A program made the translations under genes and the position numbers. A stretch of DNA of 64,000 bases from Rivularia sp. MS3 (GTDB taxonomy: Bacteria; Cyanobacteriota; Cyanobacteriia; Cyanobacteriales; Nostocaceae), in the NCBI GenBank assembly GCA_019192545.1, contig JAHCMI010000042.1, forward strand, positions 1 through 64,000. Reading direction: 5' to 3'. The notes beneath the pieces were generated by a model. That model did not search any database. It had not been told where the DNA came from and worked only from the letters and a program-made list of their open reading frames with translations. This document shows, piece after piece, positions 29,777 to 59,080 of this stretch. Position 1 is the stretch's first letter. Every line of letters starts with the position of its first letter.

Positions 29777-32700
29777 TGGAGAAAAATGCTTCTGCTTTAA
29801 GAAGTTTAACGCGAGCGATTACCCTTTCTAATGAGGAATTTTCGCTCGTGTTAGTATGCTGTAATTATCAAGTTTTACAGCAGCAAATATTACAGCATCT
29901 ACAAGAAGTTTTAGGTAACAAATTTCTGCTACAAAAAGTTTGCTTACCGTCTCATGCTAGAAGTTTATATAGTACGATTCGTACAAAAATAGTTGATAAT
30001 CGCGAGCAAAAAAGTGAAAATTTATCCAAAATAGCATTAATAGTTTTGGGTTTGGAATCGGTGGATGGACTCGATGATTTATTAAGTACTATAAATCACG
30101 TGCGAGACGAATTTCGTAAACAACATCCTTTTCCAATGGTGTTATGGGTAAACGAAGAAGTATTGCGAAAACTAAGACGCTTAGCTCCCGATTTTGCTAG
30201 TTGGGCAGCTACACCGATTAAATTTGAAATGACGACGGTACAGTTGCGACAGTTTTTGCAACAAGAAACCGATTCATTATTTACCACTGTTTTAAATATT
30301 GCGGCAGCAAGAGAAAAAAAGCCCCAAATTATTAAGGATAATCGATGCGGTAGAAACTGTTTAGTCAAAAACCAGGAAAATTCATCTGAGGATGACTGTC
30401 AATGTACTTTGGAACAAATTTGGCAGCACAAAAACGAACTGCATTATGCAATTAAGGATTTACAGAGTCGCGGAATTAATTTAACACCAGAATTACAAGC
30501 GAGTTTACAATTTGTGTTTGGTTTAGATGAATATGTCAAAGACTGTATTGAAAAAGCAATCAACCATTTTCGTAATAGTTTTCAGCTTTCACCCGGAAGG
30601 TGTGGATCGTTAGTTAATAGCGAACAGTTAACAGTTAACAGTGACAAATTAATAATAGATTATCGAAACAGTGAAAGCGTAATTTCTTCCCCCTCTACCC
30701 CCTCTACCCCCTCTTCTTCTCCTCACCTTCTCCATCAAGGAGTAATCCTCTTTTATCTTGGTTTGTGTTTTTACCGTCTTGCCGAGCGAAATCACGGAGA
30801 GCAATGTGGTAATTGGCAATCTGCTGTGAGTTATTTCGAGCAGTGCCTGCAAGTATTTGAGTTGGCAGAGCATCCAGTTTTAGTAGCGCAATTTATCGAG
30901 CAGTTAGCCGAAGTTTTACAACAACTTCAGGATTGGAATAAACTACGGGCGATCGCTCATAAATCTTTGGAGTTACACCAGCAATATGGTAGCTACACTC
31001 AACTTGCTTGTGATTGTGGTTATTTAGCAGATGTAGCTTTGCAAGAATCAAAATGGAAACAGGCGAGTAAATATGCTCAAGCTTCGCTGTTTTATTTAGC
31101 AGAGGCAAAAAATAACCATGCAGCACATCAAAGTTTATTTCCTTTGCTGTTAGAGCAAATATATCAGTTAGTTTTGGTAAAAGCGCTGCAATATTTGGGC
31201 GAGGAAAACGTAGCACAACAACATTTGGAGAATGCCAGTAAGAAGTTATCCATAGCTTTGGAAAACAGCGATTATCGTTATGATGCTCATCGCTATATCA
31301 GGCTTTTACGGCGGTTAAGATGGCTTTACTATCAATCTGGCAAGTATTTAGAAGCTTTTTTCATTCGTCGCAAACGACGTTCCATAGAGCAGCAATATGG
31401 TTTGCGTGCTTTCATTGGTGCGGGTAGGTTACAACCCCAAAGAAAAGCAAAAAATCCAGTGTTAGTTTCACCTGCGAGAAATACTCATGTTGCTTTGGAA
31501 ATTACTGCTTCGGGTAGGGAGCGAGATATTAATTTATTGATTGGAAAAATTAGCCGCTCGGATCGAAAATTAACTTTGATTCACGGTGAATCGGGAGTCG
31601 GTAAAAGTTCTATTGTTAATGCTGGTTTGGTTCCAGCTTTGCAAAATAGACCACTTGGAGACCAAATTGCGGTTCCGGTGGTGTTACAAATTTATACCGA
31701 TTGGGTGCGGGAATTGGGTAAGTCTTTGAGTGAAGCTATGTTTGTAGATAACACGGCGACTCGATACGCTTACGGTAAAGAATTAACTACATCAACTTTG
31801 CGGGCTACACCGATTACCATCCCCGGTATTTTAGAACAGTTACAAGAAAATGCGAATAATCATCTGATTACTGTATTGATTTTTGACCAGTTAGAAGAAT
31901 TTTTCTTTATTTATACCGATAGAAATCAAAAGGAAGAATTCGATAATTTTATTTGTGCGTGTTTGAATATTGCTTTTGTAAAAATTATTTTTTCACTCAG
32001 AGAAGATTATTTACACCATTTGCTGGATTTGAAACGTCTAGCGAAACAAGATTCTATCAGTCATAACATCTTGGATAAGGATATTCGCTACCAAGTTAAC
32101 AATCTTTCCTCGGAAGATGCTAAAAGCGTGATTCAGAAGTTAACCGAGCGCTCCGAATATAATATTGAACCGGCTTTAATTGATAGCTTGGTAGAAGATT
32201 TATCATCAGAAATAGGAGAAGTTCGTCCGATTGAGTTGCAGGTAGTAGGAGCGCAGCTTCAGGATGAAAGAATTACAACTTTAGCTAAATACGAACCCTA
32301 TCGACCAAATAAATTAATTGAACGATATATCAAGGAAATTATTAAGGATTGCGGCTCGGAAAACGAACAAGCTGCTCTACTCGTTTTATATTTGTTAACT
32401 GATGAAAATCATAAACGTCCTTTTAAAACTAAGGCTGAATTAGCCGCAGAATTAGCTGAGTTAGATGTAGCAGATAAATTAGAATTAGTTTTAGAAATTT
32501 TGGTTCGTTCGGGTTTAGTAGTTTTGTTTGCGGATGTAACCGAACGCTATCAATTAATCCACGATTATTTAGTTGCTTTGATTCGTTCTTTGCAACAGGA
32601 GGAATTAAGTTTTCAAACTCAATTAAAAGAGTTAAGAAATCAAGTACAGCAAAGAGAAGCAGAAATTACTCAGCTTCATAGCGAACTGAGGAGGAAAAAG

Positions 32701-34977
32701 CAGTTAAAAATAGCCCATACACAACCCCATGAAAGCTTAGATTTGTTTGCAGAATTAAAAGAACTCCGCAAGCGTGAAGAACATAGCCGTAGGGAAACTG
32801 AACGACTATTAGCTGAATTAGAACAGCAAAGACTGCAAGCTCAATTAGCAGAAAGTCAACAGCAGCAAAAACTTAGCGAAGTAAAAGTCAATCGTTCTTT
32901 AAAAATAGCTCTTGCGGGTTCTGTTACAGCTATTTTAGCGCTAACAACTTCTACCTTAATGTCAGTTTATTTGTGGAGACAATCTTTAATTAGCGAAATT
33001 CAAGCTATTAGCGCATCGGCAGAAGAACTTGCTTCCTCCGGTAAAGATTTCGATGCTTTAAAGCAAGGTTTGAAAGCGGCAAAGAAATTTGAAACAGCTT
33101 TTTTACCGGATGCTAATACCAAAGCTCAGGTAATGACAGTTTTACATCAAGTAGTGCCGCAAATTAGGGAAAGAGAAACTATCACGGGGCATTTATTAGG
33201 TGTTAATAGCATTGCTTTTAGTCCTCTCAACTCTTTTATCGCTTCTGCAAGTGCCGATAATACTGTGAAACTTTGGTATCCAAACGGAAAATTTTTTCGG
33301 ACTTTATCCGGACATACCGATGTAGTTAACAGCGTTACCTTTAGCCCAGATGCGACTACGCTTGCTTCTGCTTCTCAGGATAAAACAGTTAAATTTTGGA
33401 CTGTAGATGGTAGAGAAAATTTAACTTTATTCGGACATAAAAATATAGTTAATAGCGTTGCTTTTAGTCCCGACGGCAGCATTATTGCTTCTGGAAGTAC
33501 CGATAAAACAATTAAACTTTGGAATCGTCAAGGTAAATTAATCAAAACACTTTTAGGTCATAATGATGCGGTTTTACAAGTTGCTTTTTCCCCTAATGGT
33601 GAAACTCTGGTTTCTGCAAGCAGCGACAAGACTATTAAACTTTGGAATAAAAACGGTGAAAACATTCGTACCATTAGAGGGCATCGCGATGCAATTACCA
33701 GCATTGCTTTATCTAACGACAGCAAAATCATCGCTTCGGCAAGTTTAGATAACACTGTCAAATTGTGGAATCTACAAGGAAAGTTGTTGAAAGTAATTAA
33801 TGCTCATTCGGAAGCTGTAACTGCCGTTAATTTTAGCCCTGATAATCAAATTATTGCTACGGTAAGCACCGATGGAACCGTTAAACTTTGGCGTTGGGAA
33901 GATGGCATACTATTAGGAACCCTTAAAGGACATCAAGATTGGGTAAATGATGTCAGCTTCAGCCCCGATAATAAAACTTTAGCATCTGCTAGTAGAGACA
34001 AAACAATAAAACTGTGGTCTTGGCAAGATTTATTATTAGGAAATCTGAAAACTCATAATCAAGCAGTTACTAGCGTTAGTTTTTCCCCGAATGGTAATTT
34101 AATTGCTTCTGCAAGCGTCGATAGTACTATTAAATTATGGACTAATAAGGGTAAACAAATCACAACAATAAAACCTTCTCAAGAAGAAATATGGGATGTT
34201 AGCTTCAGTCCGGACGGTAAAATTTTGGCTTCTGCTGGTAAAGATAAAACTATTAATTTATGGCAAAATGACGGCAAATTAATTAAAAGCATTGCCGCTC
34301 ATAATTATGTAGTTTTAAGTATTGATTGGTCAATAGATGGTGATATATTTGCTTCGGCAAGTAAGGATAAAACTGTCAAATTATGGCGTAAAAATGGCAA
34401 ACTAATTAAAACTCTATCGGGACATAAACAAGCAGTAAATTGGGTAAATTTTAGTTCCGACGGTAAATTTATTGCCTCAGCTAGCGATGATAGTACGGTC
34501 AAAATTTGGGATAAATCTGGTAAATTACTACATACCTTAACCGGACATAAACGCCCTGTATTTGGTGTGGCATGGTCTAGTAAAGGTAACATACTAGCTT
34601 CCGCCAGCCTTGACGGTACGGTTAAATTATGGAATAACAAAGGCGAATTACAGCAAACTTTGATTGCAGAAGGTGAAGAATTCACTGGTGTAACATTTAG
34701 TTCCGACGGTGAATTATTAGCCGCTACTAGCGAAGATAAAGTCAAACTTTGGCAAAGTGACGGCACTTTATTAATTACTTTAAAAGCCGATAGAGAAGAA
34801 TTTACTAGTATTAGCTTTAATCCAGATGGTAATACTTTAATAAGCGGTACTAATAGGGGAACAATAATTTTAAGAAATTTGGATAGTTTAACTTTAGAGA
34901 AATTGCTAAATAAAGGATGCGATGCTTTGCGAGATTATGGTAAAGGAGGAGATAAGGTATGTCTTAACAAGAGTTAG
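29776..34977 (+). CDS. Giant TPR-STAND NTPase with membrane span and WD40 propellers
   Basis: The protein has about 1,733 residues. In order: an N-terminal region resembling a degenerate ATPase (PFPMVLWVNEEVLRKL), TPR-like helices (about 200-560), a novel-STAND-type NTPase with Walker A GESGVGKSS (about 604-612) and Walker B VLIFDQLEEFF, a coiled coil (about 950-1035), one membrane span (about 1043-1065, LAGSVTAILALTTSTLMSVY), and 14 WD40 repeats (about 1138-1725) that would make two seven-bladed propellers. I prefer the GTG at 29776, which overlaps the upstream TAG; a GTG at 29746 adds ten residues. Residues about 275-319 are an in-frame insertion of intergenic-type repeat DNA. The stop lies in a heptad array. 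Sensor-driven oligomerisation is expected for STAND proteins; no effector domain is recognisable. Confidence 0.85.
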   Translation: MEKNASALRSLTRAITLSNEEFSLVLVCCNYQVLQQQILQHLQEVLGNKFLLQKVCLPSHARSLYSTIRTKIVDNREQKSENLSKIALIVLGLESVDGLDDLLSTINHVRDEFRKQHPFPMVLWVNEEVLRKLRRLAPDFASWAATPIKFEMTTVQLRQFLQQETDSLFTTVLNIAAAREKKPQIIKDNRCGRNCLVKNQENSSEDDCQCTLEQIWQHKNELHYAIKDLQSRGINLTPELQASLQFVFGLDEYVKDCIEKAINHFRNSFQLSPGRCGSLVNSEQLTVNSDKLIIDYRNSESVISSPSTPSTPSSSPHLLHQGVILFYLGLCFYRLAERNHGEQCGNWQSAVSYFEQCLQVFELAEHPVLVAQFIEQLAEVLQQLQDWNKLRAIAHKSLELHQQYGSYTQLACDCGYLADVALQESKWKQASKYAQASLFYLAEAKNNHAAHQSLFPLLLEQIYQLVLVKALQYLGEENVAQQHLENASKKLSIALENSDYRYDAHRYIRLLRRLRWLYYQSGKYLEAFFIRRKRRSIEQQYGLRAFIGAGRLQPQRKAKNPVLVSPARNTHVALEITASGRERDINLLIGKISRSDRKLTLIHGESGVGKSSIVNAGLVPALQNRPLGDQIAVPVVLQIYTDWVRELGKSLSEAMFVDNTATRYAYGKELTTSTLRATPITIPGILEQLQENANNHLITVLIFDQLEEFFFIYTDRNQKEEFDNFICACLNIAFVKIIFSLREDYLHHLLDLKRLAKQDSISHNILDKDIRYQVNNLSSEDAKSVIQKLTERSEYNIEPALIDSLVEDLSSEIGEVRPIELQVVGAQLQDERITTLAKYEPYRPNKLIERYIKEIIKDCGSENEQAALLVLYLLTDENHKRPFKTKAELAAELAELDVADKLELVLEILVRSGLVVLFADVTERYQLIHDYLVALIRSLQQEELSFQTQLKELRNQVQQREAEITQLHSELRRKKQLKIAHTQPHESLDLFAELKELRKREEHSRRETERLLAELEQQRLQAQLAESQQQQKLSEVKVNRSLKIALAGSVTAILALTTSTLMSVYLWRQSLISEIQAISASAEELASSGKDFDALKQGLKAAKKFETAFLPDANTKAQVMTVLHQVVPQIRERETITGHLLGVNSIAFSPLNSFIASASADNTVKLWYPNGKFFRTLSGHTDVVNSVTFSPDATTLASASQDKTVKFWTVDGRENLTLFGHKNIVNSVAFSPDGSIIASGSTDKTIKLWNRQGKLIKTLLGHNDAVLQVAFSPNGETLVSASSDKTIKLWNKNGENIRTIRGHRDAITSIALSNDSKIIASASLDNTVKLWNLQGKLLKVINAHSEAVTAVNFSPDNQIIATVSTDGTVKLWRWEDGILLGTLKGHQDWVNDVSFSPDNKTLASASRDKTIKLWSWQDLLLGNLKTHNQAVTSVSFSPNGNLIASASVDSTIKLWTNKGKQITTIKPSQEEIWDVSFSPDGKILASAGKDKTINLWQNDGKLIKSIAAHNYVVLSIDWSIDGDIFASASKDKTVKLWRKNGKLIKTLSGHKQAVNWVNFSSDGKFIASASDDSTVKIWDKSGKLLHTLTGHKRPVFGVAWSSKGNILASASLDGTVKLWNNKGELQQTLIAEGEEFTGVTFSSDGELLAATSEDKVKLWQSDGTLLITLKADREEFTSISFNPDGNTLISGTNRGTIILRNLDSLTLEKLLNKGCDALRDYGKGGDKVCLNKS
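30600..30732 (+). repeat. Intergenic-type repeat inserted in frame in the STAND gene
   Basis: Heptads (AACAGTT units, about 30623-30642) and a CT-rich run (CCCCCTCTACC units, about 30689-30722) interrupt the TPR region. They encode a low-complexity stretch rich in Ser, Pro and Thr. Both sequence types otherwise lie between genes in this window. Confidence 0.75.
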
Positions 34978-46036: not shown

Positions 46037-48970
46037 ATGAGCAAGAAAAAGCTGACAAAATTTTGGCTGGGGTTGGAAGCTTCAGTGTTGTGCATGGGAT
46101 TGATTTTATTACCCTGTGGAAAAGCTTTAACCCAGGAAGATAATAACAATAGGGAAATAAAACAGTATTTAGAGATTTTAAGCAATTCTTCGCAACGCAA
46201 AAGGGTTAATTTTCGTTTAAAGAAAATAATCGATTCGGAAAATGTAGAACAGCTTTTTATACATTTAAAAGATGAAAATCCTCAAATCAGGGCTGGTGTA
46301 GCTGCGGCATTAGGAAGTTTTCCAGAAAAAGCTGAAGAAGTGGTTCCTAAATTAATTTCTGCCTTACAAGATAAAAATTCTTTGGTGCGTGCAAATGCAG
46401 CTTATGCTCTAACACGTATTGGCTCAAGAGCCGAATTAGCGATTCCCGAGCTACTTAAAGCTTTAGAAGATAGTAACCCAGAAGTAAGGGCTAATTCAGT
46501 GGATGCTCTAGGGCGTATGAAGTCTAAAGTGTCTTCCTCTATTCCAAATTTAGTTATAGCCCTCGAAGATAAAGATGAACAGGTACGCTCTTATGCTGCT
46601 TACGCTTTAGGGGGTATGGGAAAAGAAGCAGTTTCAGCAATTCCTAGTTTAACTAAAGCTTTAAAAGATGATTACTTTAAAGTTCGTTCTCGTGCGGCTC
46701 AATCTTTAGGGCGTATAGGCTCCCCAGCAAAATCTTCAGTTCCCAAACTGACTAAACTTCTCAGGGATGAAAATACTAAAGTTCGTTCTGATGCAATTAC
46801 AGCTTTGATGGCGATAGATTCCCAAAATGTATTAATAGTACCCATACTTGCAGAAACTCTCAACGATACCAATCTAGAAATTCGTATCAAAGCAGCTAAT
46901 GCTTTGGGAGACATGGGGATTAAAGCAGCCGATGCAGTACCAGCACTTACAAAAGCCTTGCAAAATAAAGAACCGCAACTGCGCGATAAAGCTGCTGAGG
47001 CTTTAGGGAAAATTGGCTCGGAATCAGCGGTAAAACCGCTTACTAAAGCTTTAGAAGATAAAGAAGCATGGGTTCGTAGAAAAGCTAGTCATGCATTAGG
47101 TAAAATCGGTGCTAAAGCTGCACCAGCTTTTACAAAGCTTACCGAAGTATTAAAAGATAAAGATAAAAAAGTTAGTTCTGCTGCTGCTGACGCTTGGGGA
47201 AAAATAGCAGAAGATTATCAAGATGAAGTCACAAAATTATCTGATAAAGAATTAGAAACAGCAGTTTCTAGTTTAAAATCTGTTTTAAAAATTGTAGAAG
47301 ATCCTGCTGCTAATTTTAACGGAAAGCAGCTAGCACCCATAAGGCGATCGCTGTTTACAATTCAAACAGAAAAAGATTCCCGAATTTTGGCTATTGCTTT
47401 AAAGTGGGTTGGAAAAAACCCGTGGCTGGCTGTAATTGCTATCTACTTAATATTTTTCCCTTCTTTATGGGCGACTGTATTATGGATACGTCCTTTATGG
47501 TTGCTTAAAGCTAATGGTGTGCTGCAACCTTTAAGTAATATACAATTACCGGAAGCTCTTGGTGGTTGGACAATATCGATTCCTAGCTTAATATTTCTCA
47601 AATCATTTGCATATCGTTCGCAAGTACTTTCTGCTTGGGTGGAAACACATATTAAAGCAGCCCAAGAAACTTTTTCTGAGAAAAAAACTGTCAGCGCTTG
47701 TTTGGACAGGATTTCGATTCCGGTAATTCTTGATGGTAAAACTGTGAATAATCTTTCGGCTGAAGATTTAAAGTCAAGTTTTGATAAAAAACTAACTAAT
47801 ATTTTGATTTGGGCTGAAGGTGGTGCAGGAAAAACAAGTTTGGCTTGTCAAATCGCACAAATGGCTATGTCGGATGATGTTAAAGAACGTCCTTGTAAAC
47901 ATAGAATGTTACCCATAATCATCGAACAAGAATTAGATTTTGATGTTGCAGAAGGGGAACATCTTTTAACCGAAACAGTTGCAGGGCAATTACAAATATT
48001 AATCGGCGAATCCCAAGCAATTCCGAAAGAGTTAGTCGAAAAATTACTACGTCAAAGAAGAATTTTAGTTATTATCGACCACCTTTCAGAGATGAGTGAA
48101 GCGACAAGAAAACAAATTCGTCCGGCTTCGCCTGGATTTCCTGCAAATGCTTTGATTGTTACTTCTAGATTAGAAGAATCTCTTGATAATGTTCCCAAAA
48201 CTACGATTAAACCTTTACGAGTAGCAGGAAATCAGCTTTCATCTTTTATGGAAGCTTATTTAAATCAACGAGGTAAGCGTCATTTGTTTAATGATGCTGA
48301 ATATTTCGATGCTTGTAAACGTTTATCTTTGATGGTGGGAAACCGGAATATTACGGTGTTATTAGCAAAACTTTACGCCGAGCAAATGATTTCTCGTGCC
48401 GATAAAGAACAGGATAAGTTTGTTGATGATTTGCCGTTGAGTATTCCTGATTTAATGCTTTCATATCTCAATGAATTGAATAGAGGTGCGTCGGATATTC
48501 AATTAGATAATCGAACTATTCAAAAATTTGCTAAAGCTATCGCTTGGGAATGTTTGAAGCATAGTTATCGTCCCAGCCCTGCTAAATTAGATGAGGTTTT
48601 AGCAGCCCTCAAAGATAGCAATAGCACCAATATTTATTTACAGCATTTAGAGAAAAGATTGCGAGTTATTCAAATCAGCGAACCCGGTAGAGATAAAGTT
48701 CGTTTTGCTATCGAACCTTTGGCAGAATATTTAGCTGCTTTACACTTAGTTGATACTTATGGGCAGGATAACCATAAATGGATGGAGTTTATTAACAAAG
48801 CTAAATCCCTGCCCGATTTAGATGCTATTCAAGGTTTCTTATTAGCAGTACAAGATTGTTGCATGACTAATTCGGAAGAAGTTCCTAGTTTTGTTGTGGC
48901 TTCGCTATCCGAATTTACAGGTGTAATGTTAGAAGCAAATACGCAAAGCTTAATTACGTCGATTTTGTAG
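46037..48970 (+). CDS. HEAT-repeat/TM/NACHT-like ATPase, paralogue 1
   Basis: The 977-residue protein begins with a signal-peptide-like segment (about 10-33). About ten PBS-lyase-type HEAT repeats follow (65-390, units like [20 protein letters not shown]). A linker leads to one membrane span (about 460-485, [20 protein letters not shown]). The second half is a NACHT/STAND-like NTPase with Walker [10 protein letters not shown] near 593-601 and Walker [13 protein letters not shown] near 673-684. The helical C-terminus includes [12 protein letters not shown]. The signal peptide and span place the HEAT array outside the cytoplasm and the ATPase inside. No effector domain is recognised. A close paralogue starts 34 bp downstream. 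Confidence 0.82.
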
Positions 48971-49004
48971 GTGTTTAGAGCTAATATTTTTATTTTTTAC
49001 AGCT

Positions 49005-52000
49005 ATGAGTAAAATTAAAAAAAATATACATTTACATATTTTGGGAATTTATTTATTCTCTATAGGATTATATTTGACAAATATAAATCACGTTAGGGGA
49101 GAAATTAGTGACAGCATAATCCAAAAATATGGAGAAAATATCGATAAAATTGAGGATTATAAGTTAAGTAAATTTAATTTAGAAAATACTACCAGCGAAA
49201 ATATTCACGAAGTAGTTGAAAAGTTAACAAGTACAAATCCTAAAGTTCGCGCTGGTGCTGCAAATATTCTTAATAGCGTAGACAGCAAATCGGTAATCCC
49301 AGCGCTTATCAAAGCTTTACAAGACGAAAATGCACAAGTTCGCTCGAATGCTGCTCTTTCATTAGGAGAAATAGAAAAAAACAATCCATCACCATCAATA
49401 GTTACAGCACTTAGTGAAGCTTTAAAAGATGAAAATGTAACCGTTCGTTATAGTGCTGCTCATTCATTAGGAAAAATTGCAACAGGATATGAAGGATATA
49501 AAAAAATCTATGGAGCAATTCCGGCACTTATTCAAACTCTACAAGACAAAAATGCCAAAGTGCGTTCAAAAGCTGCGTTTGCTTTAAATAAATTAGAAAT
49601 AATTGATAGACAAGAGCTTGTAAACGAGCAGGCAGAAGCAATTGCAAAACAAATACCTGTATTTACCCAAGCTTTAGTAAATAAAGATGCACAAGTTCGT
49701 TTATCTGCTGCTATCGCTTTGGCTCTTTTGAAAGATAAAGCAGCATCATCAGTACAATCGCTTGTAAAAATTTTACAAGACAACAATCCAAAAGTTCGTT
49801 TATCTGCTGCGATCGCTTTGGGAAATATTGGGGATAAAGCAGCAGTAGAGCCACTTCTTGCAGTTTTGGAAGATAAAAATTCACAAGTTCGTTCATCTGC
49901 TGCTAAAGCCTTGGGAAATATTGGAGATAAAGCAGCAGTAGAGCCACTTCTTGCAGCTTTGGAAGATAAAGATTCACAAGTTCGTTCATCTGCTGCTGAA
50001 GCTTTGGGGCTTATTGAAGACAAAGCAGCAGTAAAACAACTTATTAAAGCTCTCAAAGATGAAGAAGAAAAAGTTCGTGCGTCTGCTGCTCAAGCTTTAG
50101 GGCTGATTAAAGACAAAGCAGCAGTAAAACCTCTTACCAAAGCTTTGGAAGACGAAGAATCTATGGTTCGTTTAATTGCTAATATTGCTTTGGGCAGAAT
50201 GGGGAAAACAGCAGCTTCAGCAGTACCAGAAATTATCCTAACTTTGAAAGATACGGATAGATTTGTTCGCTCATCTGCTGGTACAGCTTTATCTTCTATT
50301 AGTAAAGACTACAGAAATCAAGCCGAAAAACTATCCAATCAAGAGTTAGAAATTGGGATTACTACCTTAGAAACAGCTTTAAAAGCATTAGAAGCAATCA
50401 AAGAAAAATTTGAAGATGAGCAAGAATCTCTGAAAGCAGATTTAACCGCCCTAAAAAAAGAAAAAGACTCGCGTTTAACATCGCGCATCCTGGAATGGAT
50501 GGTAAAACACCCTTGGTTTGCAGGTACATTTATCTACCTAATATTCTTCCCCTTATTTTGGTCAAGTTTATTATTAATACGTCCTTTATGGCTGCTAAAA
50601 CTTAATCAGAAACTTCAACCCTTAAGCAATTTACAATTACCAGAAGCCCTCGGTGGTTGGACAATCTCTATTCCCTCCATCATATTTTTACAGCCATTTA
50701 GCTATCATCCGAGAGTTTTAGATGCATGGGTAGCAACTAATATCAAAGCCGCTAGCGATAACTTCTCACAGAAAAAGACAGTCAGCAATCGAGCCGAACA
50801 TATTTCTCTACCAGTTGTTGTCGATAAAAAAACCGTCGCCAATTTCTCCGGTAACGATTTAAAAGCTTGCTTTGACAAAAAACTTACTAATATCTTAATT
50901 CATGCCGAAGGAGGCTCTGGTAAAACAAGTTTGGCTTGTCAATTAGCAAAATGGGGAATGTCAGACGACATCAATATTCGCCCTTGTAAACACCGGATGC
51001 TACCGATACTAATCGAACAAGAATTAGATATTGAAACACAAGGTAATCAAGCTTTTATACAAGAAATTACAGGGCAGTTACAAGTATTAATTGGTGAATC
51101 GGAAGTTATTCCCACCAAATTAGTTGAAAACTTATTACGTCAACGACGAATTTTAGTTATAATCGACCATTTTTCCGAAATGAGCGAAGCTACCAGAAAA
51201 CAAATTCGTCCCGCTTCTGGTAACTTTCCCGCCAACGCTTTAATAGTAACTTCCCGTTTAGAAGAATCTCTCGATAACGTTCCCAAAACAACTTTAAAAC
51301 CGCTACGAGTATCTGGTAATCAACTTTCATCATTTATGGAAGCTTACTTAACTCAAAGAGGAAAGCGAGATTTATTTGATGATGCCGAATATTTTGATGC
51401 TTGTCGTCGTTTATCTTTGATGGTAGGTAAGCGTAATATTACAGCTTTATTTGCTAAACTTTATGCCGAGCAGATGATAGCCAAAGTTACAGTTGATAGC
51501 GATGATTTTGTCGATGATTTACCGTTAACTATTCCCGATTTAATGTTGGGGTATCTCAACGAATTGAATCGAGATAATGCTGACGGTGAATTAGATAATC
51601 GTACAGTTCAAAAAGACGCGAAAATTATTGCTTGGGAGTGTTTGAAGAAAACTTTTCGTCCCGGTAGTAGAAAATTAGATGATGTTGTTGCCGTACTTGA
51701 TAACCAAGATAGTGTTAATTCAAGATTGCATCATTTAGAAAAAAGATTGCGAATTATTCAAATTAGCGAGCCTGGTAGAGATAAAATTCGTTTTGCTTTA
51801 GATCCACTTGCGGAATATTTAGCTGCTTTGTATTTAATTGATAATTATGGACAAGATAACGATAAATGGATTGAGTTTATTAATGCTACTAAATCTGTAA
51901 ATGATTTGGAAGCAATTAAAGGTTTCTTGCTAGCGGTGCAGGATTGTTGTGCTAGCAATGCTGAAGATGTTCCAGATTCGGTGGTTGCGGCATTATCTGA

Positions 52001-52058
52001 ATTAACTGGTGTGGTTTTACAAGTTAATCGGGAGAGTTTGATTGCATCAGGTTTCTAG
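49005..52058 (+). CDS. HEAT-repeat/TM/NACHT-like ATPase, paralogue 2
   Basis: This is the tandem duplicate of the preceding gene, 1,017 residues. A hydrophobic N-terminus ([18 protein letters not shown]) precedes about eleven HEAT repeats (75-430). The span lies near 500-525 ([20 protein letters not shown]). The NTPase has Walker [10 protein letters not shown] near 633-641 and [12 protein letters not shown]. From the membrane span on, the two paralogues are very alike (for example [20 protein letters not shown] against [13 protein letters not shown]); the HEAT halves differ in number and sequence. Two HEAT units are recent 93-base DNA duplications (49818-50003). This suggests a conserved signalling half with a fast-changing external sensor. 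Confidence 0.82.
49818..50003 (+). repeat. Recent 93-base HEAT unit duplication
   Basis: Units 49818-49910 and 49911-50003 are nearly identical in DNA, each coding for a 31-residue HEAT repeat ([13 protein letters not shown] core). The following units share the frame but have diverged more. Confidence 0.88.
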
Positions 52059-52706
52059 ATTACTAAGAAATTAACTAATCTCTGTCAATAAACTCGGTAA
52101 TTCTCTTGAAAGCATATTTCTAGAAACTCACCACATTAATTTTGATGTGTGATTCAAGAATTTAAAAAACAGCAGAGTACGCTGAGTACGCTGAGGAAGA
52201 AAATTTAGAGGATTAATCTTATTAAAATAAAATTGGTGTTACACCTCATAACTTATATGGTGGAATATTAGTATTGTGTCCCATAAAATATGATGGGTAA
52301 AAATCGCTTCTCAACTTCTCTTATTTTTCTTTTCTCAGCGTACTCTGCGCTCTCTGCGGTTATATTAATTAAACCATCAAAACTAACGGGACAAACTACT
52401 AGTTGTGGAATCCACAGATATGAATAATCAACAATTCAGAGATTTCGCCGATGCTAACCTAAGTAAATATCTGCATAATATACAGAATATATAGTACTTA
52501 TACTATTAATTGGGGCTTATGCAACTGGCATATTCTCATTGCGCTATACCATGACAGAGTATAGGAAAGCAAACAAATGCCTTTAGGAAGACTTACATAT
52601 TAAGGTGAATACTTCGCTGTCGTTCCTAATAACGCAGTTGACTTACTTTTGCATAATTCCTAAAACATAAAAACAGTTTTTAAAATAATGAATTTTGATA
52701 AATTAC
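52059..52706. other. About 640-bp spacer with an inverted-repeat element
   Basis: No convincing gene. It holds the inverted repeat listed at 52168-52361 and, in its right part, presumably the promoter for the receiver/MscS pair. Confidence 0.5.
52168..52361. repeat. Inverted repeat element (GCAGAGTACGCTGAG arms)
   Basis: The left arm (52168-52202) and the right arm (52327-52361) are imperfect inverted copies about 35 bases long, sharing GCAGAGTACGCTGAG and AAGAAAA. The spacing is about 125 bases. Similar AGAGTACGC-type repeats are familiar from cyanobacterial spacers. It may be a small non-autonomous element. Confidence 0.6.
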
Positions 52707-52796
52707 ATGCAAAAGCAGACACTATCATCTAGAATGCTACCTCGCTCTACAAATGTAAATTTCTTATTTACTGAAGAGAATTGTTTAGGTGCGAAT

Positions 52797-53294
52797 ATGG
52801 TTTTGATTGCAGATGAAGAAGAACAAGTTCGCGATGCTTTATCAGTTGCAGTTCACAGATGGGCACAAGAAGAACAAAGAAACGTAGAAACTATTAAAGT
52901 TGAAAACGGACAACAAACCATAGATTCAATACATCATATGGTACGCTATCATAAACCACCAACTTTAGTGATTGCAGACCTAAGAATGCCCGATATGAGC
53001 GGAGTGGAAGTAGCTGAAATAATTAATAGAAAATACGCTCAAATACCTATAGTTATTACAGCATCATACGATGAAAACGACGAAAATTTAATACAAAAAG
53101 CTGACGATTTTGCCGACCAATATTCTCATGTTAGTTTTATTATTCGGACAAAAAGTTCTCCACTTTTAAAAGTGGTTTTAGAATCTGAAATCAAAAAGAT
53201 TTTATCTAAACCAGGTACCCACAGACAAGATACTCAAAGTCAATTTGGTACTCTGAGAAAAAAACTTAGCAGGCTTTGGAATAATTCTTTTTAG
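52797..53294 (+). CDS. Receiver-domain protein paired with an MscS-like channel
   Basis: A single CheY-like receiver domain makes up this protein of about 165 residues. MVLIADEEEQVRDAL carries the acidic pocket, LVIADLRMPDMSG has the phosphoacceptor Asp (residue 61 with this start), ITAS gives the conserved Thr/Ser position and RTKSS the Lys. There is no output domain, only a basic C-terminal tail (about 35 residues). I choose the ATG at 52797, where the domain begins; an ATG at 52707 would add 30 residues. It lies 9 bases before the MscS-like gene and is surely cotranscribed with it. No histidine kinase gene is adjacent. Confidence 0.8.
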   Translation: MVLIADEEEQVRDALSVAVHRWAQEEQRNVETIKVENGQQTIDSIHHMVRYHKPPTLVIADLRMPDMSGVEVAEIINRKYAQIPIVITASYDENDENLIQKADDFADQYSHVSFIIRTKSSPLLKVVLESEIKKILSKPGTHRQDTQSQFGTLRKKLSRLWNNSF

Positions 53295-53303
53295 GAATAA
53301 ACA

Positions 53304-54269
53304 ATGGAACATATCCCCATCCGCATTGCCAAAGCTTTGGTTACAGCGCTTATTTTAACTATCCTATATTTTGTAACTCACCCTCACATCAAAAAATTAG
53401 GAAGTAATGGCAGAGCAGTTGCTTACATTACGAGTATGTTTTCTATCCCCGGAATTCTTGTCGCTTCTTTAGCGATCGCCGAGGTTCCTTTTAATGTATT
53501 AGCACCTATAACCGGTTCTTTAGCTTTGGGTTTTTCCTTTGGTGCTAAGCAAGCTGTAGAAAATACTGCAACAGTTTTTCTTAATTTAAGTGATGATGTT
53601 TACGAGGTTGGAGATATTCTTAGTTTTCCCCACGATGATGATTTTTACAAAGTTTCTGCAATCAAAACTTCTAGTATCAAGCTGCTTTCATTAGGTAAAG
53701 GTGCTGGAAAAATTCTGAATATTTCTCCTAGCGTACTGGCGCAAAGAGAGATTATAAATTATACCCAAGATGGTGCAAGTAATTTATGCAAATGGACTTT
53801 TGAAATTTCTTTGAAAGCTCCTATTTCACAACCAGGTGAAGGAGATATTACAAAGATGGAAGATACTTTACTAAAAGCAGCTAAAGAAGTTCAAAACTGG
53901 ATTATTCAAAATACAAAACATCCCAAAGCGATAGCTGCTTTCCAAGCTGAATTGCAAAAAGATAGCGGTCGTAAAGACGTACCGGCGGGTGTATTCTTAA
54001 CGAAAGTAGAAAAATTTATTCATCATTATATTGTTGCTTTGTGGGTTCCTGGTATTGAAATATATCGAGTAAATGCGGTTCAAAATGAATTGCTACATCG
54101 TGTATGGTATTACGCCGTGGAATACCACAATATAGAGCTAGCAAAACCCGATTCTCATGACAATACTGATATTGTCGAAGCAACTCATGCTATAGCTGTA
54201 TCCTTGAAACAAGGTTTAAGTCAAATTAGTAATTCTGATAGTATTATGCAACGTAAAATAGAAGTTTAA
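53304..54269 (+). CDS. MscS-like mechanosensitive channel protein
   Basis: This 321-residue protein has the MscS core in short form. Membrane segments lie near residues 8-24 (AKALVTALILTILYFV) and 45-62 (SIPGILVASLAIAEV). The pore-lining helix region is LAPITGSLALGFSFGAKQAVENTATVFL, followed by the beta domain (DVYEVGDILSF, then KVSAIKTSSIKLLSL) and a cytoplasmic alpha/beta part. A long C-terminal helix-rich tail (200-321) replaces the usual small vestibule end. It should form a tension- or ligand-gated channel in the inner membrane. The operon with a receiver domain hints at phosphorylation-linked control, which is inference. Confidence 0.82.
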   Translation: MEHIPIRIAKALVTALILTILYFVTHPHIKKLGSNGRAVAYITSMFSIPGILVASLAIAEVPFNVLAPITGSLALGFSFGAKQAVENTATVFLNLSDDVYEVGDILSFPHDDDFYKVSAIKTSSIKLLSLGKGAGKILNISPSVLAQREIINYTQDGASNLCKWTFEISLKAPISQPGEGDITKMEDTLLKAAKEVQNWIIQNTKHPKAIAAFQAELQKDSGRKDVPAGVFLTKVEKFIHHYIVALWVPGIEIYRVNAVQNELLHRVWYYAVEYHNIELAKPDSHDNTDIVEATHAIAVSLKQGLSQISNSDSIMQRKIEV

Positions 54270-55206: not shown

Positions 55207-56178
55207 TTAAGCATTAGGTACGAAGGATTTCGAGTAATGAATTCCTGTATCTCCAAATAGTTCATTTAAATATGGTGGTGTCAGGGTATTATTCCAAATC
55301 CATAACTGATGTATTGCAGAGGTAAAAGTAAATAACAAGCTCGTTTTGTTACTAAAACTCCAGGAATCCCATTGCAGGGTTTGCATCATCCGTTTCAAAG
55401 TTCTGATTAAGCTATTGCGTTTATAGTTTTGATGGCGAGTTTTAATCAAAGTTTTGGTTATTTTAATTGCAGAAGTATCGGGATAAGCCCAAACGCCGAA
55501 TCCCCAAAATTTTGTCATATGATTAATTTCATCTATTGCTAACTGTTCCAAAATATCTTGCAGCGAACCGGTTGTATGAGCCATCAGCCATAAATACAGG
55601 CAGGTAGCACCGAACTCAGTCGCTATGCGATGCAAGGCGTGACGGTACAAATCTTCGTAGGGGTTGTTAGTGGGTAAATAGCCTCTGACGGTACGGAGTT
55701 TAGGAGTAATTTTTTCACCAGTTAACTGCTGATAAACCCTGATTAATGCCGGAGTATGCTGCCGCTCTTCTTTTTCCCATAAACCTGGTTCTATTAGCTT
55801 TCCATTATCATCAATCGTTCCTCCTACATACTGAGCCATTTGTGGATGTAATTTCTGTAAATATAACCGACTCGTTTGAGTATATCCTCGGATAGGCGCT
55901 TCGGTATCTATCGCGCCAATTAAAATTGATAAAAATACTTCTAAATCAATACCGATTATTTGTTCGCAGTTAATACTTTGCCAGTCTATCGGTTTCCAAG
56001 GGCGCGGTTGTGGTTGCTGAAGTTGCAATGGTAAGTCTTTTAGGCGTTCGTTTAATTCTTCTTTTGTAAGATAATATTTGATGAGAGATTTTATATTTTG
56101 CTGAATTTGCCAATAGTTTGTATCACAGTTTGCGTTATTTTCCCGATTAATATGGGATTTGCTAAGTATTTTTATCAT
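55207..56178 (-). CDS. Ferritin-like di-iron protein (desaturase-like)
   Basis: This 323-residue soluble protein appears to have a four-helix di-iron site of the ferritin-like superfamily. Candidate ligands are Glu in GAIDTEAPIRG, EExxH in KEERQHTPALIRVY, Glu in RIATEFGATCLYLWL and DExxH-like DEINHMTKFW. This E-EExxH-E-DExxH order resembles acyl-ACP (type 2) desaturases, but I cannot place it in a named family. The N-terminus is basic and polar. It sits directly upstream of uppS on the same strand, so a role with lipid or prenyl substrates is conceivable but unproven. Confidence 0.7.
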   Translation of the reverse strand: MIKILSKSHINRENNANCDTNYWQIQQNIKSLIKYYLTKEELNERLKDLPLQLQQPQPRPWKPIDWQSINCEQIIGIDLEVFLSILIGAIDTEAPIRGYTQTSRLYLQKLHPQMAQYVGGTIDDNGKLIEPGLWEKEERQHTPALIRVYQQLTGEKITPKLRTVRGYLPTNNPYEDLYRHALHRIATEFGATCLYLWLMAHTTGSLQDILEQLAIDEINHMTKFWGFGVWAYPDTSAIKITKTLIKTRHQNYKRNSLIRTLKRMMQTLQWDSWSFSNKTSLLFTFTSAIHQLWIWNNTLTPPYLNELFGDTGIHYSKSFVPNA

Positions 56179-56608: not shown

Positions 56609-59080
56609 ATGGATGATGAGGCAGTATTAGTATGGTTGGATACCGTCGTACCTTCTAAAACTGGAGAACAATTAAGCGAATTAGAAAAAATTATTCTTCA
56701 ACAAGTTTGGCTGGGAAGAAAATACTTAGAAATTGCTGATTTTTATGGCTGTACTGAAGGGCATGCTAAAGATGTAGGCTCTCGGTTATGGAAATTACTT
56801 TCTAAGGTAATGCGTCAGAAAATTACTAAAAGTAACTGTCGCAGGGTTTTAGAAAAGTGTTTTCGTAAAGCTGGTACGATATCGGGATTGTTTGATTATC
56901 AAGTTACCCCTAACAGTTCCTTTATTGAAAACTTGGCGGAAAACCTAAGCCCCCAGCCTGCTTTAAGAGGAAATAATCAAAATTTGATCGAGCCGTTGTT
57001 GCTGGAGAATAATGTTGAACACGAAGATATCAATTTTATCGGTAGAAGCGATGCTATAGATCGTATCCATAATTTAGTAAATCTTGGTAACAAAGTTATT
57101 GTTATTCAAGGTGAAGGTGGTTTGGGGAAAACAACTTTAGCTCAGCAATACCTGCATTCTCAGCAATTTGATGTGGTTTTGGAATTGTTGATGGCGAAGG
57201 AGACTCAAAACATCACTTCAGCGCAACGGGTAGTGGAAGAGTGGTTAAAATATGATTTGGCACAAGAGCCGGGATTAGAGTTTGGAGTAACTTTAGGAAG
57301 ATTGAAACGACAACTCCACAGCAAGCGAATTGGAATTTTAATTGATAATTTAGAACCTGCACTCGATGGAAAAGGAAGATTTATTATCCCCCATCGCAAC
57401 TATATTGAATTGTTTCGGATTTTAACTGATGCGAGAATACAGTGTACAACTTTAATTACTAGTAGAGATAGACTTTGCGAACCTGAATTAAATGTAACTC
57501 ACTACCGACTTCCCGGTTTAAATGAGCAAAGTTGGCAACAATATTTTAGTAAGCGTGCAGTTAAAGTTGATTTACCCACTTTAGAAAAGATGCATCATGC
57601 TTATGGTGGAAATGCTAAAGCAATGGGAATTCTTTGCGGTTCAATTCAGGAAGATTTTGACGGTGATATTAATGCTTACTGGCAAGAAAATTATGCCGAT
57701 CCTTTAGCGGTAACCGATTTAAAAAATTTAGCTGCAAGTCAAATCAACCGCTTGCAAAATCTCGATTCTCAAGCATATCGTCTGCTGTGTCGTTTGGGAT
57801 GTTATCGCTACCAAGATGTTTCTAGCGTTCCCACTCAGGGGCTTTTGAGTTTGTTATGGGATGTGCCTTCAGAGCAGCACCGTCAAATTATCGCTTCATT
57901 AAAAAATCGTTCTTTGATAGAGTGCAATAAAGGTAAATATTGGCTGCATCCGGTAATTAGAGCCGAAGTTATTTCACGATTGCGTAAGTGTGAAGATTGG
58001 GCGATCGCCAATCACAAAGCAGCAGAATTTTGGACGCATAGTGTAGAAACAATCGAAACTTTTCAAGATGCTCTGCAAGCGTTGGAAGCTTATTATCACT
58101 ATATTGAAATCAATCAATTTGAATTAGCCGGAAAGCTGATTATCAAAAGTCGAAACAATCAGTGGGGACAATTTCTACCCCTCGGCAGCACTTTATACCG
58201 CATGGGTTTAATTCAACCAGTTTTATCTGCCATAATTCATATTATTAATCATATTGACGACGATAAGAAAATCAGCGAACTATATAATATTTTAGGTGAT
58301 TTGTATTGGATTAGCGGTAAAGTTGATGCTGCAATTTCATATCAAGAAAAAACTATTTTTTTAGCCAGACAATCACTAGCAAGTTTGGAGAATAAAAAAG
58401 ATAACAACCAAGCATTTTACTATTATCGAATGCTGGAAGTTGATTCTTTATTAAGCATCGGACTTTATAAAATAGATTTATGGGAATTGCAAGAATCCGC
58501 TCAATTTTTTCAACAGGTAATTAACTTAGCTCAGAATACCGCACATCATCCCTGGGCAGAAAAAGCAGCAGTTTGTTTATCTTTAGTTAATTCCTATTTA
58601 GAACAATACCCATCTGCTTATTTACTTGCGGATGAGTGTTACAACAATATTAAAGCAGAGCCGAATATTGAAAAAACTGGAAGATTTGCTTATTTTATTC
58701 AAATACTCGGTCAAACCTATATAAAATTAGCAGACTTTAGTAAAGCAAAAGAAATGTTTTCGATGGCTTTGGCTTTTGCAGAAGAAAGCCACTATACACA
58801 AGTAAAAGCCAAAAGTTTAAATGGTTTAGCAGAAATTCATCGCAGCAATAAAGAATTTGAATTGGCTTTGAAAAATCATTTAGAAGCAATCGAGCTATTA
58901 GATAAAATCGGTGCGAAATGCGATTTAGCAGAAGCTTATTTTCAACTTGGTTTGACTTATAAGAATATGGGAAAAGAGAGTGAAAGTCAGGTAAATACTG
59001 ATAAGGCTATTCGCTTGTTTTCCGAGATCAAAGCGCCAAAGCAGGTGGAGAAAATTAGCAGTCAGTTAGCAGTTGTGTAG
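56609..59080 (+). CDS. vMAP-like HTH / NB-ARC / TPR STAND protein
   Basis: This 823-residue cytoplasmic STAND ATPase starts with about 90 residues resembling the helix-turn-helix module of vWA-MoxR-associated proteins (LSELEKIILQQVWLGRKYL, then EIADFYGCTEGHAKDVGSRL). An NB-ARC core follows, with Walker A GEGGLGKTT near residues 170-178, Walker B IGILIDNLEPAL and the ITSRDRL sensor. A winged-helix part (WLHPVIRAEVISRL) comes next, then TPR repeats from about 540 to 823. Such proteins switch on when the TPR sensor binds a ligand. The N-terminal module usually recruits a partner; no separate effector is adjacent, but a hybrid kinase gene starts 129 bp downstream. Confidence 0.83.
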   Translation: MDDEAVLVWLDTVVPSKTGEQLSELEKIILQQVWLGRKYLEIADFYGCTEGHAKDVGSRLWKLLSKVMRQKITKSNCRRVLEKCFRKAGTISGLFDYQVTPNSSFIENLAENLSPQPALRGNNQNLIEPLLLENNVEHEDINFIGRSDAIDRIHNLVNLGNKVIVIQGEGGLGKTTLAQQYLHSQQFDVVLELLMAKETQNITSAQRVVEEWLKYDLAQEPGLEFGVTLGRLKRQLHSKRIGILIDNLEPALDGKGRFIIPHRNYIELFRILTDARIQCTTLITSRDRLCEPELNVTHYRLPGLNEQSWQQYFSKRAVKVDLPTLEKMHHAYGGNAKAMGILCGSIQEDFDGDINAYWQENYADPLAVTDLKNLAASQINRLQNLDSQAYRLLCRLGCYRYQDVSSVPTQGLLSLLWDVPSEQHRQIIASLKNRSLIECNKGKYWLHPVIRAEVISRLRKCEDWAIANHKAAEFWTHSVETIETFQDALQALEAYYHYIEINQFELAGKLIIKSRNNQWGQFLPLGSTLYRMGLIQPVLSAIIHIINHIDDDKKISELYNILGDLYWISGKVDAAISYQEKTIFLARQSLASLENKKDNNQAFYYYRMLEVDSLLSIGLYKIDLWELQESAQFFQQVINLAQNTAHHPWAEKAAVCLSLVNSYLEQYPSAYLLADECYNNIKAEPNIEKTGRFAYFIQILGQTYIKLADFSKAKEMFSMALAFAEESHYTQVKAKSLNGLAEIHRSNKEFELALKNHLEAIELLDKIGAKCDLAEAYFQLGLTYKNMGKESESQVNTDKAIRLFSEIKAPKQVEKISSQLAVV

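What the first reader, a model, noticed from the sequence alone, without database searches (positions are those of the whole stretch)
46037..52058. Tandem HEAT-TM-STAND receptors with external sensor arrays
Two paralogues each show a signal peptide, HEAT repeats, one span, then a NACHT-like ATPase. This is the layout of an outside-in receptor: an extracytoplasmic sensing solenoid joined to an intracellular NTPase switch. The ATPase halves are nearly the same while the HEAT halves diverge, as if sensor specificity is evolving. Most bacterial STAND sensors are cytoplasmic, so this architecture deserves attention.
Basis: partly seen in the sequence, partly recalled or inferred. Interest (0 to 1): 0.7.

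Follow-up and report, generated by a model that had tools for sequence, protein, structure and literature searches.

The report
Membrane-spanning bacterial NLR-like receptor pair
Two neighbouring cyanobacterial genes appear to encode membrane-spanning relatives of immune NLR proteins, with a repeat-built binding arm predicted outside the inner membrane and an NLR-type ATP switch inside, a wiring that differs from the usual, wholly intracellular NLR layout.

Summary
Genes A (46037-48970, 977 aa) and B (49005-52058, 1017 aa) each encode signal-peptide-like start - HEAT solenoid - one membrane span - NACHT-type STAND ATPase - NCH4. "Nearly the same" overstates the ATPase halves: 70% identity against 39% for HEAT. 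The family occurs in 74 of 388 genomes of the order and 15 of 386 drawn across the phylum. The ATPase model's best PDB matches are NAIP5, NOD2, NLRC4 and NLRP3. The layout is kept while the ectodomain changes: a Rhizobium relative carries a Ycf48-type beta-propeller in place of HEAT, and one cyanobacterial clade has a short outside part and its HEAT array at the C-terminus. In a same-genus genome the pair is an array of five; three copies share 95-97% identical TM+ATPase DNA but have old, divergent HEAT halves, and the trees of the halves conflict. So switch halves are shared while ectodomains stay distinct. Against strong "evolving specificity": HEAT is under purifying selection (omega 0.19 and 0.35 between orthologues) and changes do not favour one face. 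Topology is predicted, not measured; ligand and output are unknown.

The parts
46037..48970 (+). Gene A, 977 aa: signal-peptide-like start - HEAT - TM - NACHT STAND - NCH4
46037..46129 (+). A: signal-peptide-like segment (residues 1-31; KKK n-region, hydrophobic core, possible cleavage GKA|LTQ)
   Evidence: sequence; hydropathy; kept in the G006 orthologue
46136..47296 (+). A: HEAT solenoid (residues 34-420), predicted extracytoplasmic
   Evidence: Pfam HEAT_2 223.8 bits; AF2 model
47321..47416 (+). A: long stalk helix (residues 429-460) before the membrane
   Evidence: AF2 secondary structure
47420..47488 (+). A: single TM helix (residues 462-484)
   Evidence: hydropathy peak 2.25; AF2 helix
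47492..47761 (+). A: juxtamembrane region (residues 486-575) with PLWLL and the family motif [10 protein letters not shown] (here [10 protein letters not shown])
   Evidence: alignments A3 and A4
47762..48808 (+). A: NACHT ATPase with HD/WHD/HD2-like region
   Evidence: AF2 model; Foldseek to NAIP5, NOD2, NLRC4, NLRP3
47813..47836 (+). A: P-loop AEGGAGKT (Walker A)
   Evidence: pattern; G, G, K, T invariant
48062..48079 (+). A: Walker B strand ILVIID (D681 invariant)
48812..48928 (+). A: NCH4
49005..52058 (+). Gene B, 1017 aa: same layout, 34 bp after A
49005..49100 (+). B: signal-peptide-like segment (residues 1-32), weaker than A's
   Evidence: sequence
49179..50354 (+). B: HEAT array (borders approximate)
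   Evidence: Pfam HEAT_2 264.3 bits
49777..50126 (+). B: 93-bp tandem repeats (3.8 copies, 84% matches), i.e. duplicated 31-aa HEAT units
50523..50579 (+). B: single TM segment (residues 507-525)
50904..50927 (+). B: P-loop AEGGSGKT
51894..52016 (+). B: NCH4

Best explanation
A and B are single-pass membrane receptors. Sec export puts the HEAT solenoid in the periplasm (or a lumenal space) and leaves a NACHT-type STAND ATPase in the cytoplasm. The solenoid binds a protein or peptide ligand. The change is passed through the stalk helix and TM to the autoinhibited NACHT, which swaps ADP for ATP and clusters in the plane of the membrane. Shown by sequence or model: domain order, exported-type N-terminus, single TM, NACHT/NLR fold, NCH4, family-wide conservation with exchangeable ectodomains, and sharing of the TM+ATPase half in a related array. 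Inferred: topology in the cell, ligand binding, nucleotide switching and oligomerisation (by analogy with NLRs). Output unknown: no effector domain and no dedicated partner gene was found, so it either acts through shared host proteins or through the clustered membrane and juxtamembrane parts themselves.
For: Signal-peptide-like start in 64/72 members against 54/292 neighbours; TM helix and high-confidence models; NLRs as best PDB matches of the ATPase model; ectodomain similar to designed alphaRep binders, 42% identity and TMt 0.87 to 6bzx_A; Rhizobium relative with a Ycf48/BNR propeller in the same place (PSII_BNR 3.2e-59; ATPase 29.7% identical over 80% of the query, E 6e-35); HEAT at the C-terminus in one clade; conflicting half-gene trees in the G006 array.
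Against: No experiment on topology. Net charge is positive on both sides of the TM (+0.81 before, +1.96 after), so the positive-inside rule helps little. B's signal peptide is weak, and the annotated start of the Rhizobium protein lacks a basic n-region. HEAT substitutions show no concentration on one helix (47/260 against 61/300) and no omega above 1. Members with HEAT only at the C-terminus keep a TM with little outside, so an outside array is not indispensable to the family. Pfam finds neither NACHT nor NCH4 in the Rhizobium protein. No dedicated partner was found.
Confidence: 0.62

Rival explanations
1. Envelope or thylakoid-lumen assembly/quality-control factor: the ectodomain holds a client protein outside and the ATPase half drives or times its assembly; no non-self sensing.
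For: The Rhizobium ectodomain is a Ycf48-type propeller, and Ycf48 is known as a photosystem II assembly factor (recalled; the Pfam name says the same). HEAT halves are under purifying selection. In the window the neighbours look like ordinary genes (YebC- and UppS-like by eye).
Against: Patchy presence (74 of 388 genomes in the order), clean absence in a same-genus genome and expansion to five copies with divergent ectodomains are unlike a housekeeping factor. Rhizobium has no photosystem II (recalled).
Confidence: 0.18
2. Antiphage STAND protein (Avs/bNACHT-like) that watches phage adsorption or DNA entry at the inner membrane and triggers cell death.
For: NACHT/NLR fold; patchy, array-forming distribution; some relatives end in an FGE-sulfatase domain, a lectin-like fold used by DGR targets (recalled); STAND NTPases of multicellular bacteria are proposed antigen sensors (PMC10907252, passages seen).
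Against: PADLOC matches lie in the HEAT half, one reaching residue 510 of B, and none is an Avs or bNACHT model; no nuclease, TIR or other effector seen in the 12 members scanned with Pfam; no relative in phage records or in the pattern scan of viral contigs. Whether the other loci lie in defence islands was not tested.
Confidence: 0.25
3. Membrane-tethered but wholly cytoplasmic STAND: the N-terminal hydrophobic helix and the second segment form a hairpin or anchor, so HEAT stays inside, as in the C-terminal-HEAT members.
For: C-terminal HEAT members exist with a short outside part; both flanks of the TM are positively charged; B's N-terminal segment is weak.
Against: The second segment is one helix of about 23 residues in the model, too short for a hairpin. 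The N-terminal segment looks like a cleaved Sec signal (for instance ..SWA|Q) in many members. The Rhizobium ectodomain is of a kind usually exported (recalled).
Confidence: 0.1

Closest known systems
Animal NLRs (NAIP5, NOD2, NLRC4, NLRP3)
   Same: NACHT-HD-WHD-HD2-like fold; best PDB matches of the ATPase model (E 5.6e-9 to 2.1e-8); P-loop, Walker B and TSR motif
   Different: 10-16% identity among the 50 rows listed; no N-terminal effector domain; repeats N-terminal to the ATPase and beyond a TM, instead of C-terminal and cytoplasmic; HEAT instead of LRR
Bacterial bNACHT proteins (clades with NCH1 or SNaCT C-terminal domains; PMC12169576, passages seen)
   Same: Central NACHT with a C-terminal accessory domain; one clade is said to lack discernible effector domains
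   Different: NCH4 rather than NCH1/SNaCT; signal peptide, ectodomain and TM present; defence function untested here
Pfam NCH4 proteins (PF22731)
   Same: All 19 NCH4 matches in 41 genomes lie on genes of this family (positions compared)
   Different: Pfam names the C-terminal domain only; the exported ectodomain and its exchange are described here
DGR-diversified STAND targets in multicellular bacteria (PMC10907252, passages seen)
   Same: STAND/NACHT joined to a presumed sensor; some targets predicted to have TM segments and periplasmic parts
   Different: No DGR was looked for at this locus; diversity here comes from duplication, repeat turnover and sharing of the other half
alphaRep designed HEAT binders
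   Same: 42% identity and rmsd 2.7 over 291 columns to 6bzx_A
   Different: Artificial library proteins, not receptors

Membership tests
STAND NTPase, NACHT clade | P-loop, Walker B aspartate and TSR motif conserved | tested here: met
   K599, T600, D681 and R711 invariant in the 19- and 39-row alignments; motif names recalled
STAND NTPase, NACHT clade | Match to Pfam NACHT PF05729 | tested here: inconclusive
   not at 1e-3 for A or B; above cut-off in 5 of 10 family members scanned; not found in the Rhizobium relative
STAND NTPase, NACHT clade | NACHT + HD1 + WHD + HD2 fold | tested here: met
   the first eight Foldseek hits are NLRs over 464-531 alignment columns, but with TMq 0.36-0.52, so the arrangement of domains is only partly matched
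STAND NTPase, NACHT clade | ATP-dependent oligomeric switching | not testable with these tools
   needs biochemistry
NCH4 family (PF22731) | NCH4 above curated cut-off | tested here: met
   56.5 and 58.4 bits against 27
Single-pass transmembrane receptor | Signal peptide, ectodomain, one TM, cytoplasmic domain | tested here: inconclusive
   met by sequence and model; topology itself not measured, and B's signal peptide is weak
Avs / bNACHT antiphage systems | Match to known defence profiles | tested here: not met
   PADLOC returned only HEAT-, WGR- or RT-type models in the HEAT half, one reaching residue 510 of B
Avs / bNACHT antiphage systems | Effector domain at the N-terminus or in a partner gene | tested here: not met
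   none recognised by Pfam in 12 members; no dedicated neighbour; some bNACHT clades also lack one
Avs / bNACHT antiphage systems | Protection against phage | not testable with these tools
   -
DGR target | Adjacent reverse transcriptase, template and variable repeat | not tested
   no dedicated search was made

The most novel reading that the evidence does not exclude
A bacterial class of transmembrane NLRs: NACHT switches wired to periplasmic ectodomains (HEAT, Ycf48-type propeller) that report events outside the inner membrane, kept as a receptor repertoire in which recombination homogenises the TM+switch half while ectodomains diverge, and in which the recognition array can move across the membrane during evolution.
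Probability: 0.35. Interest if true: 0.85.

Novelty: new variant of a known kind. Interest (0 to 1): 0.6.

Why it matters
NLRs and most described bacterial STAND sensors read the cytoplasm (recalled). A family that joins the same switch to an exported, exchangeable binding arm would extend NLR logic to outside sensing, and would give a simple two-half system for asking how an outside signal is passed through a membrane to a NACHT. The sister genome's array, with nearly one switch sequence shared by several ectodomains, makes domain-swap tests straightforward.

Tried and rejected
Pfam NACHT on A and B gave nothing at 1e-3; resolved through relatives and structure. NCBIfam gave only HEAT or trivial matches. 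The sequence search of the PDB with the ATPase profile found no meaningful relative (best E 0.0019, a ribosomal protein). Rfam and tRNA scans of the window were empty. The phage-record search gave no match; the viral-contig scan used two peptide patterns and none of 450 matched stretches was a relative. The genome contigs pattern scan returned one named locus, Hassallia byssoidea.

Conserved partner genes. Recurring neighbours were sought in the fetched regions. The strongest, a TPR gene of 617-656 aa, lies downstream on the same strand, 495-2212 bp away, in nine loci (L088, L090-L093, L095, L096, L103, L123). It matches in 278 of 388 genomes of the order against 74 of 388 for the family, so it is a widespread gene beside which the family sits in this subgroup, and it was rejected as a dedicated partner. 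Uma2-type genes lie between the two in five of these loci. The response-regulator and MscS-like genes downstream of B travel with the island in G006. They also form a pair elsewhere in G006 where no family gene was matched, and were not found in the other 67 loci searched, whose flanks are limited, mostly about 5 kb or less; rejected as dedicated partners.

Hypervariable concave face: rejected; between orthologues 47/260 changes fall in the helix-A stretch and 61/300 in the helix-B stretch. Positive selection on HEAT: not supported. HEAT dN between paralogues may be inflated by misalignment of repeats; dS above 1 (A against B) is saturated. The clades tested by AU were named after I had seen the identities.

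Limits of the counts. The 72 family ORFs come from 65 fetched regions plus the window, chosen by hand from the hit lists and including near relatives; they are not a random sample. L091 (incomplete ATPase) was dropped from the tree. L134, L088 and L130 lack a clear N-terminus in the ORF as called. My HEAT profile missed diverged HEAT: Pfam found HEAT_2 above cut-off in the three 'otherLong' members scanned, of five (L110, L036, L127). My first, stricter signal-peptide rule failed both window proteins and gave 59/72 against 53/292, because it forbade a charged residue at -2; the relaxed rule was made after seeing this. The tree is a quick one rooted on a very long Rhizobium branch; the C-terminal-HEAT clade has SH-aLRT 91 and is not starred. 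Some hits are fragments or carry stop codons.

Full report
What is there. A (46037-48970, 977 aa) and B (49005-52058, 1017 aa) are adjacent on the + strand, 34 bp apart. Pfam finds HEAT repeats through the first half and NCH4 at the C-terminus of both. Hydropathy shows an N-terminal segment (1.86 in A, 1.32 in B), one strong segment at 464-482 (A) or 507-525 (B), and in A a peak of 1.66 at 253 inside the HEAT array. The AlphaFold2 model of A (39-row alignment, mean pLDDT 86.8, pTM 0.56) shows a HEAT solenoid 34-420, a long helix 429-460, a TM helix 462-484, a further helix 486-499 and a folded ATPase; the low pTM means the relative placing of the halves is not determined.

The ATPase. A separate model of the ATPase half (22-row alignment, pLDDT 85.3, pTM 0.83) retrieves NAIP5, NOD2, NLRC4 and NLRP3 as best PDB matches, E 5.6e-9 to 2.1e-8, with 10-16% identity among the 50 rows listed. 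P-loop, Walker B D and TSR positions are invariant or nearly so. Pfam NACHT is not at 1e-3 in A and B but is above cut-off in 5 of 10 family members scanned (L110, L107, L034, L128, L127). I conclude it is a NACHT-clade STAND ATPase; switching was not tested.

The family. Of 60 genomes (own included), 19 match at E<=1e-3: 14 by long matches at 43% identity or more, 5 only by short weak ones. With a profile, 74 of 388 genomes of the order match at E<=1e-40, some by fragments, and 15 of 386 genomes drawn across the phylum match at E<=1e-20, 3 of them outside the order. In 41 genomes all 19 NCH4 matches lie on genes of this family, and 0 of 14 control genomes match. A named member is in Hassallia byssoidea, Nostocales. 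Plasmid records give one Nostoc, one Scytonema and two Rhizobium phaseoli plasmids. Phage records give none, nor does the pattern scan of viral contigs.

Layout and its variants. Among 71 cyanobacterial rows of the tree, my own HEAT profile labels 45 as HEAT outside only, 12 as HEAT at the C-terminus only, 3 as both, 5 as long outside part without profile HEAT and 6 as short outside part without HEAT (per-protein table). Three of the five long ones were scanned by Pfam and have HEAT_2 above cut-off. The 12 C-terminal-HEAT rows fall in one part of the tree (17 rows: 12 C, 4 short, 1 both; SH-aLRT 91), with outside-HEAT rows around it; L117 and L135 have both in a separate place. So the array probably moved inside once and was added inside once more; the support is moderate and the root uncertain. 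Three members (L116, L128, L130) end in an FGE-sulfatase domain.

The Rhizobium relative. P0003 (1266 aa, conjugative plasmid pRphaN831c) has, read from the sequence, a hydrophobic N-terminus without a basic n-region and a hydrophobic stretch before the ATPase. Pfam finds Ycf48/BNR propeller repeats (PSII_BNR E 3.2e-59) but neither NACHT nor NCH4. The ATPase is 29.7% identical over 80% of the query, E 6e-35, and keeps [16 protein letters not shown] and [11 protein letters not shown]. Two plasmid records carry it at 100% identity, which counts as one case. A different binding fold in the same place is the best independent sign that the exported half is an exchangeable recognition module.

Export. 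With one rule applied to both sets, a signal-peptide-like start occurs in 64 of 72 family ORFs and in 54 of 292 neighbouring ORFs of at least 200 aa (a stricter first rule gave 59/72 and 53/292 and failed A and B). Of 70 members with a clear TM, 1 has another strong hydrophobic segment in the ectodomain and 3 after the TM. Charge is positive on both sides of the TM, so topology rests on the signal peptide, one span and the need of the ATPase for ATP.

Evolution of the halves. For A against its orthologue g1, dN is 0.068 in HEAT and 0.044 in ATPase, dS 0.38 and 0.31; the dN ratio is 1.55 (1.07-2.34) and omega 0.19 against 0.14. For B against g2 the dN ratio is 2.13 (1.66-3.13), omega 0.35 against 0.10. 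For A against B it is 2.85 (2.22-3.67), with dS above 1 in both halves (1.27, 1.39). Between g2, g3 and g5 the HEAT omega is 0.52-0.66. HEAT is thus less constrained, not shown to be positively selected. B also carries 93-bp tandem repeats, so HEAT units turn over.

Shared switches. The sister genome G006 has five tandem copies at the same place, flanked by the same genes. Copies g2, g3 and g5 have TM+ATPase DNA 95-97% identical (dS 0.10-0.17) but HEAT dS 0.70-0.87. Between g2 and g3 identity jumps from about 60% to 100% just before the TM; g5 differs in a patch after the TM (82-88%). The HEAT tree joins B with g2 (100/100) and rejects g2+g3+g5 (AU p 4.3e-5); the ATPase tree joins g2+g3+g5 (100/100) and rejects B+g2 (AU p 1.2e-6). 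Gene conversion, or replacement of the HEAT half, after the two lineages parted is the simplest reading; either way one switch half is shared by several ectodomains. In G005 the FAD monooxygenase gene lies next to UppS and A, B, the response regulator and the MscS-like gene are not found between; in G002 and G007 the SBP gene lies next to UppS. G001, G003 and G004 were not examined at this site.

Ectodomain. The HEAT half resembles alphaRep designed binders (42% identity, TMt 0.87 to 6bzx_A), which fits a binding role. Changes between orthologues are spread over both helices (47/260, 61/300), which does not support a single hypervariable face.

Mechanism. Most likely an outside-in receptor: ligand binding to the solenoid, a signal through stalk and TM, release of the NACHT, clustering in the membrane. 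The last steps are by analogy with NLRs. Output is unknown: no effector domain in the 12 members scanned, and the one strongly recurring neighbour, a TPR gene, is present in 278 of 388 genomes and so is not dedicated. An immune role is possible but not shown; an assembly role remains a serious rival because of the Ycf48 link.

Literature. Nine open-access searches listed no paper whose title, or start of abstract as shown, describes a signal-peptide-HEAT-TM-NACHT family. Passages only were seen of PMC7159879, PMC8195603, PMC10907252, PMC12169576 and PMC2853523. The library lacks most subscription papers, so absence there is weak evidence. PMC10907252 predicts that some DGR-linked NACHT targets reach the periplasm, so membrane-linked bacterial NACHTs are not unheard of; hence 'new variant of a known kind'.

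Noticed in passing
52695-54269: Response-regulator-like gene followed 10 bp later by a gene I read as MscS-like (no Pfam match above cut-off); the pair is inside the same presence/absence island and recurs elsewhere in the sister genome (L162).
   Followed up: partly
56609-59080: NB-ARC/TPR STAND protein downstream; matched at this site in G005 and, up to the end of the fetched stretch, in G006.
   Followed up: partly
29746-34977: 1743-aa protein with a very long WD40 array in its C-terminal part.
   Followed up: no
55207-56178: 323-aa protein kept in G005 and G006, weak rubrerythrin-like resemblance only (E 0.14).
   Followed up: no
52170-52360: Short repeats of the type GAGTACGCTGAGTACGCTGAG and, facing them, CAGCGTACTCTGCG, after gene B.
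   Followed up: no
L158:4371-7688: Nostoc sp. C057 plasmid: a family gene annotated as two CDS, a HEAT/TM part and an FGE-sulfatase part; XcyI restriction endonuclease and IS4 transposase nearby.
   Followed up: no
L160:2705-4585: Scytonema NIES-4073 plasmid: family gene whose ORF ends early in the ATPase, with transposase genes on both sides.
   Followed up: no
G294:C1:2491338-2494724 and G306:C3:58742-62077: Family fragments with stop codons lie close to the widespread TPR gene, as do intact members elsewhere: probable decayed copies at one site.
   Followed up: no
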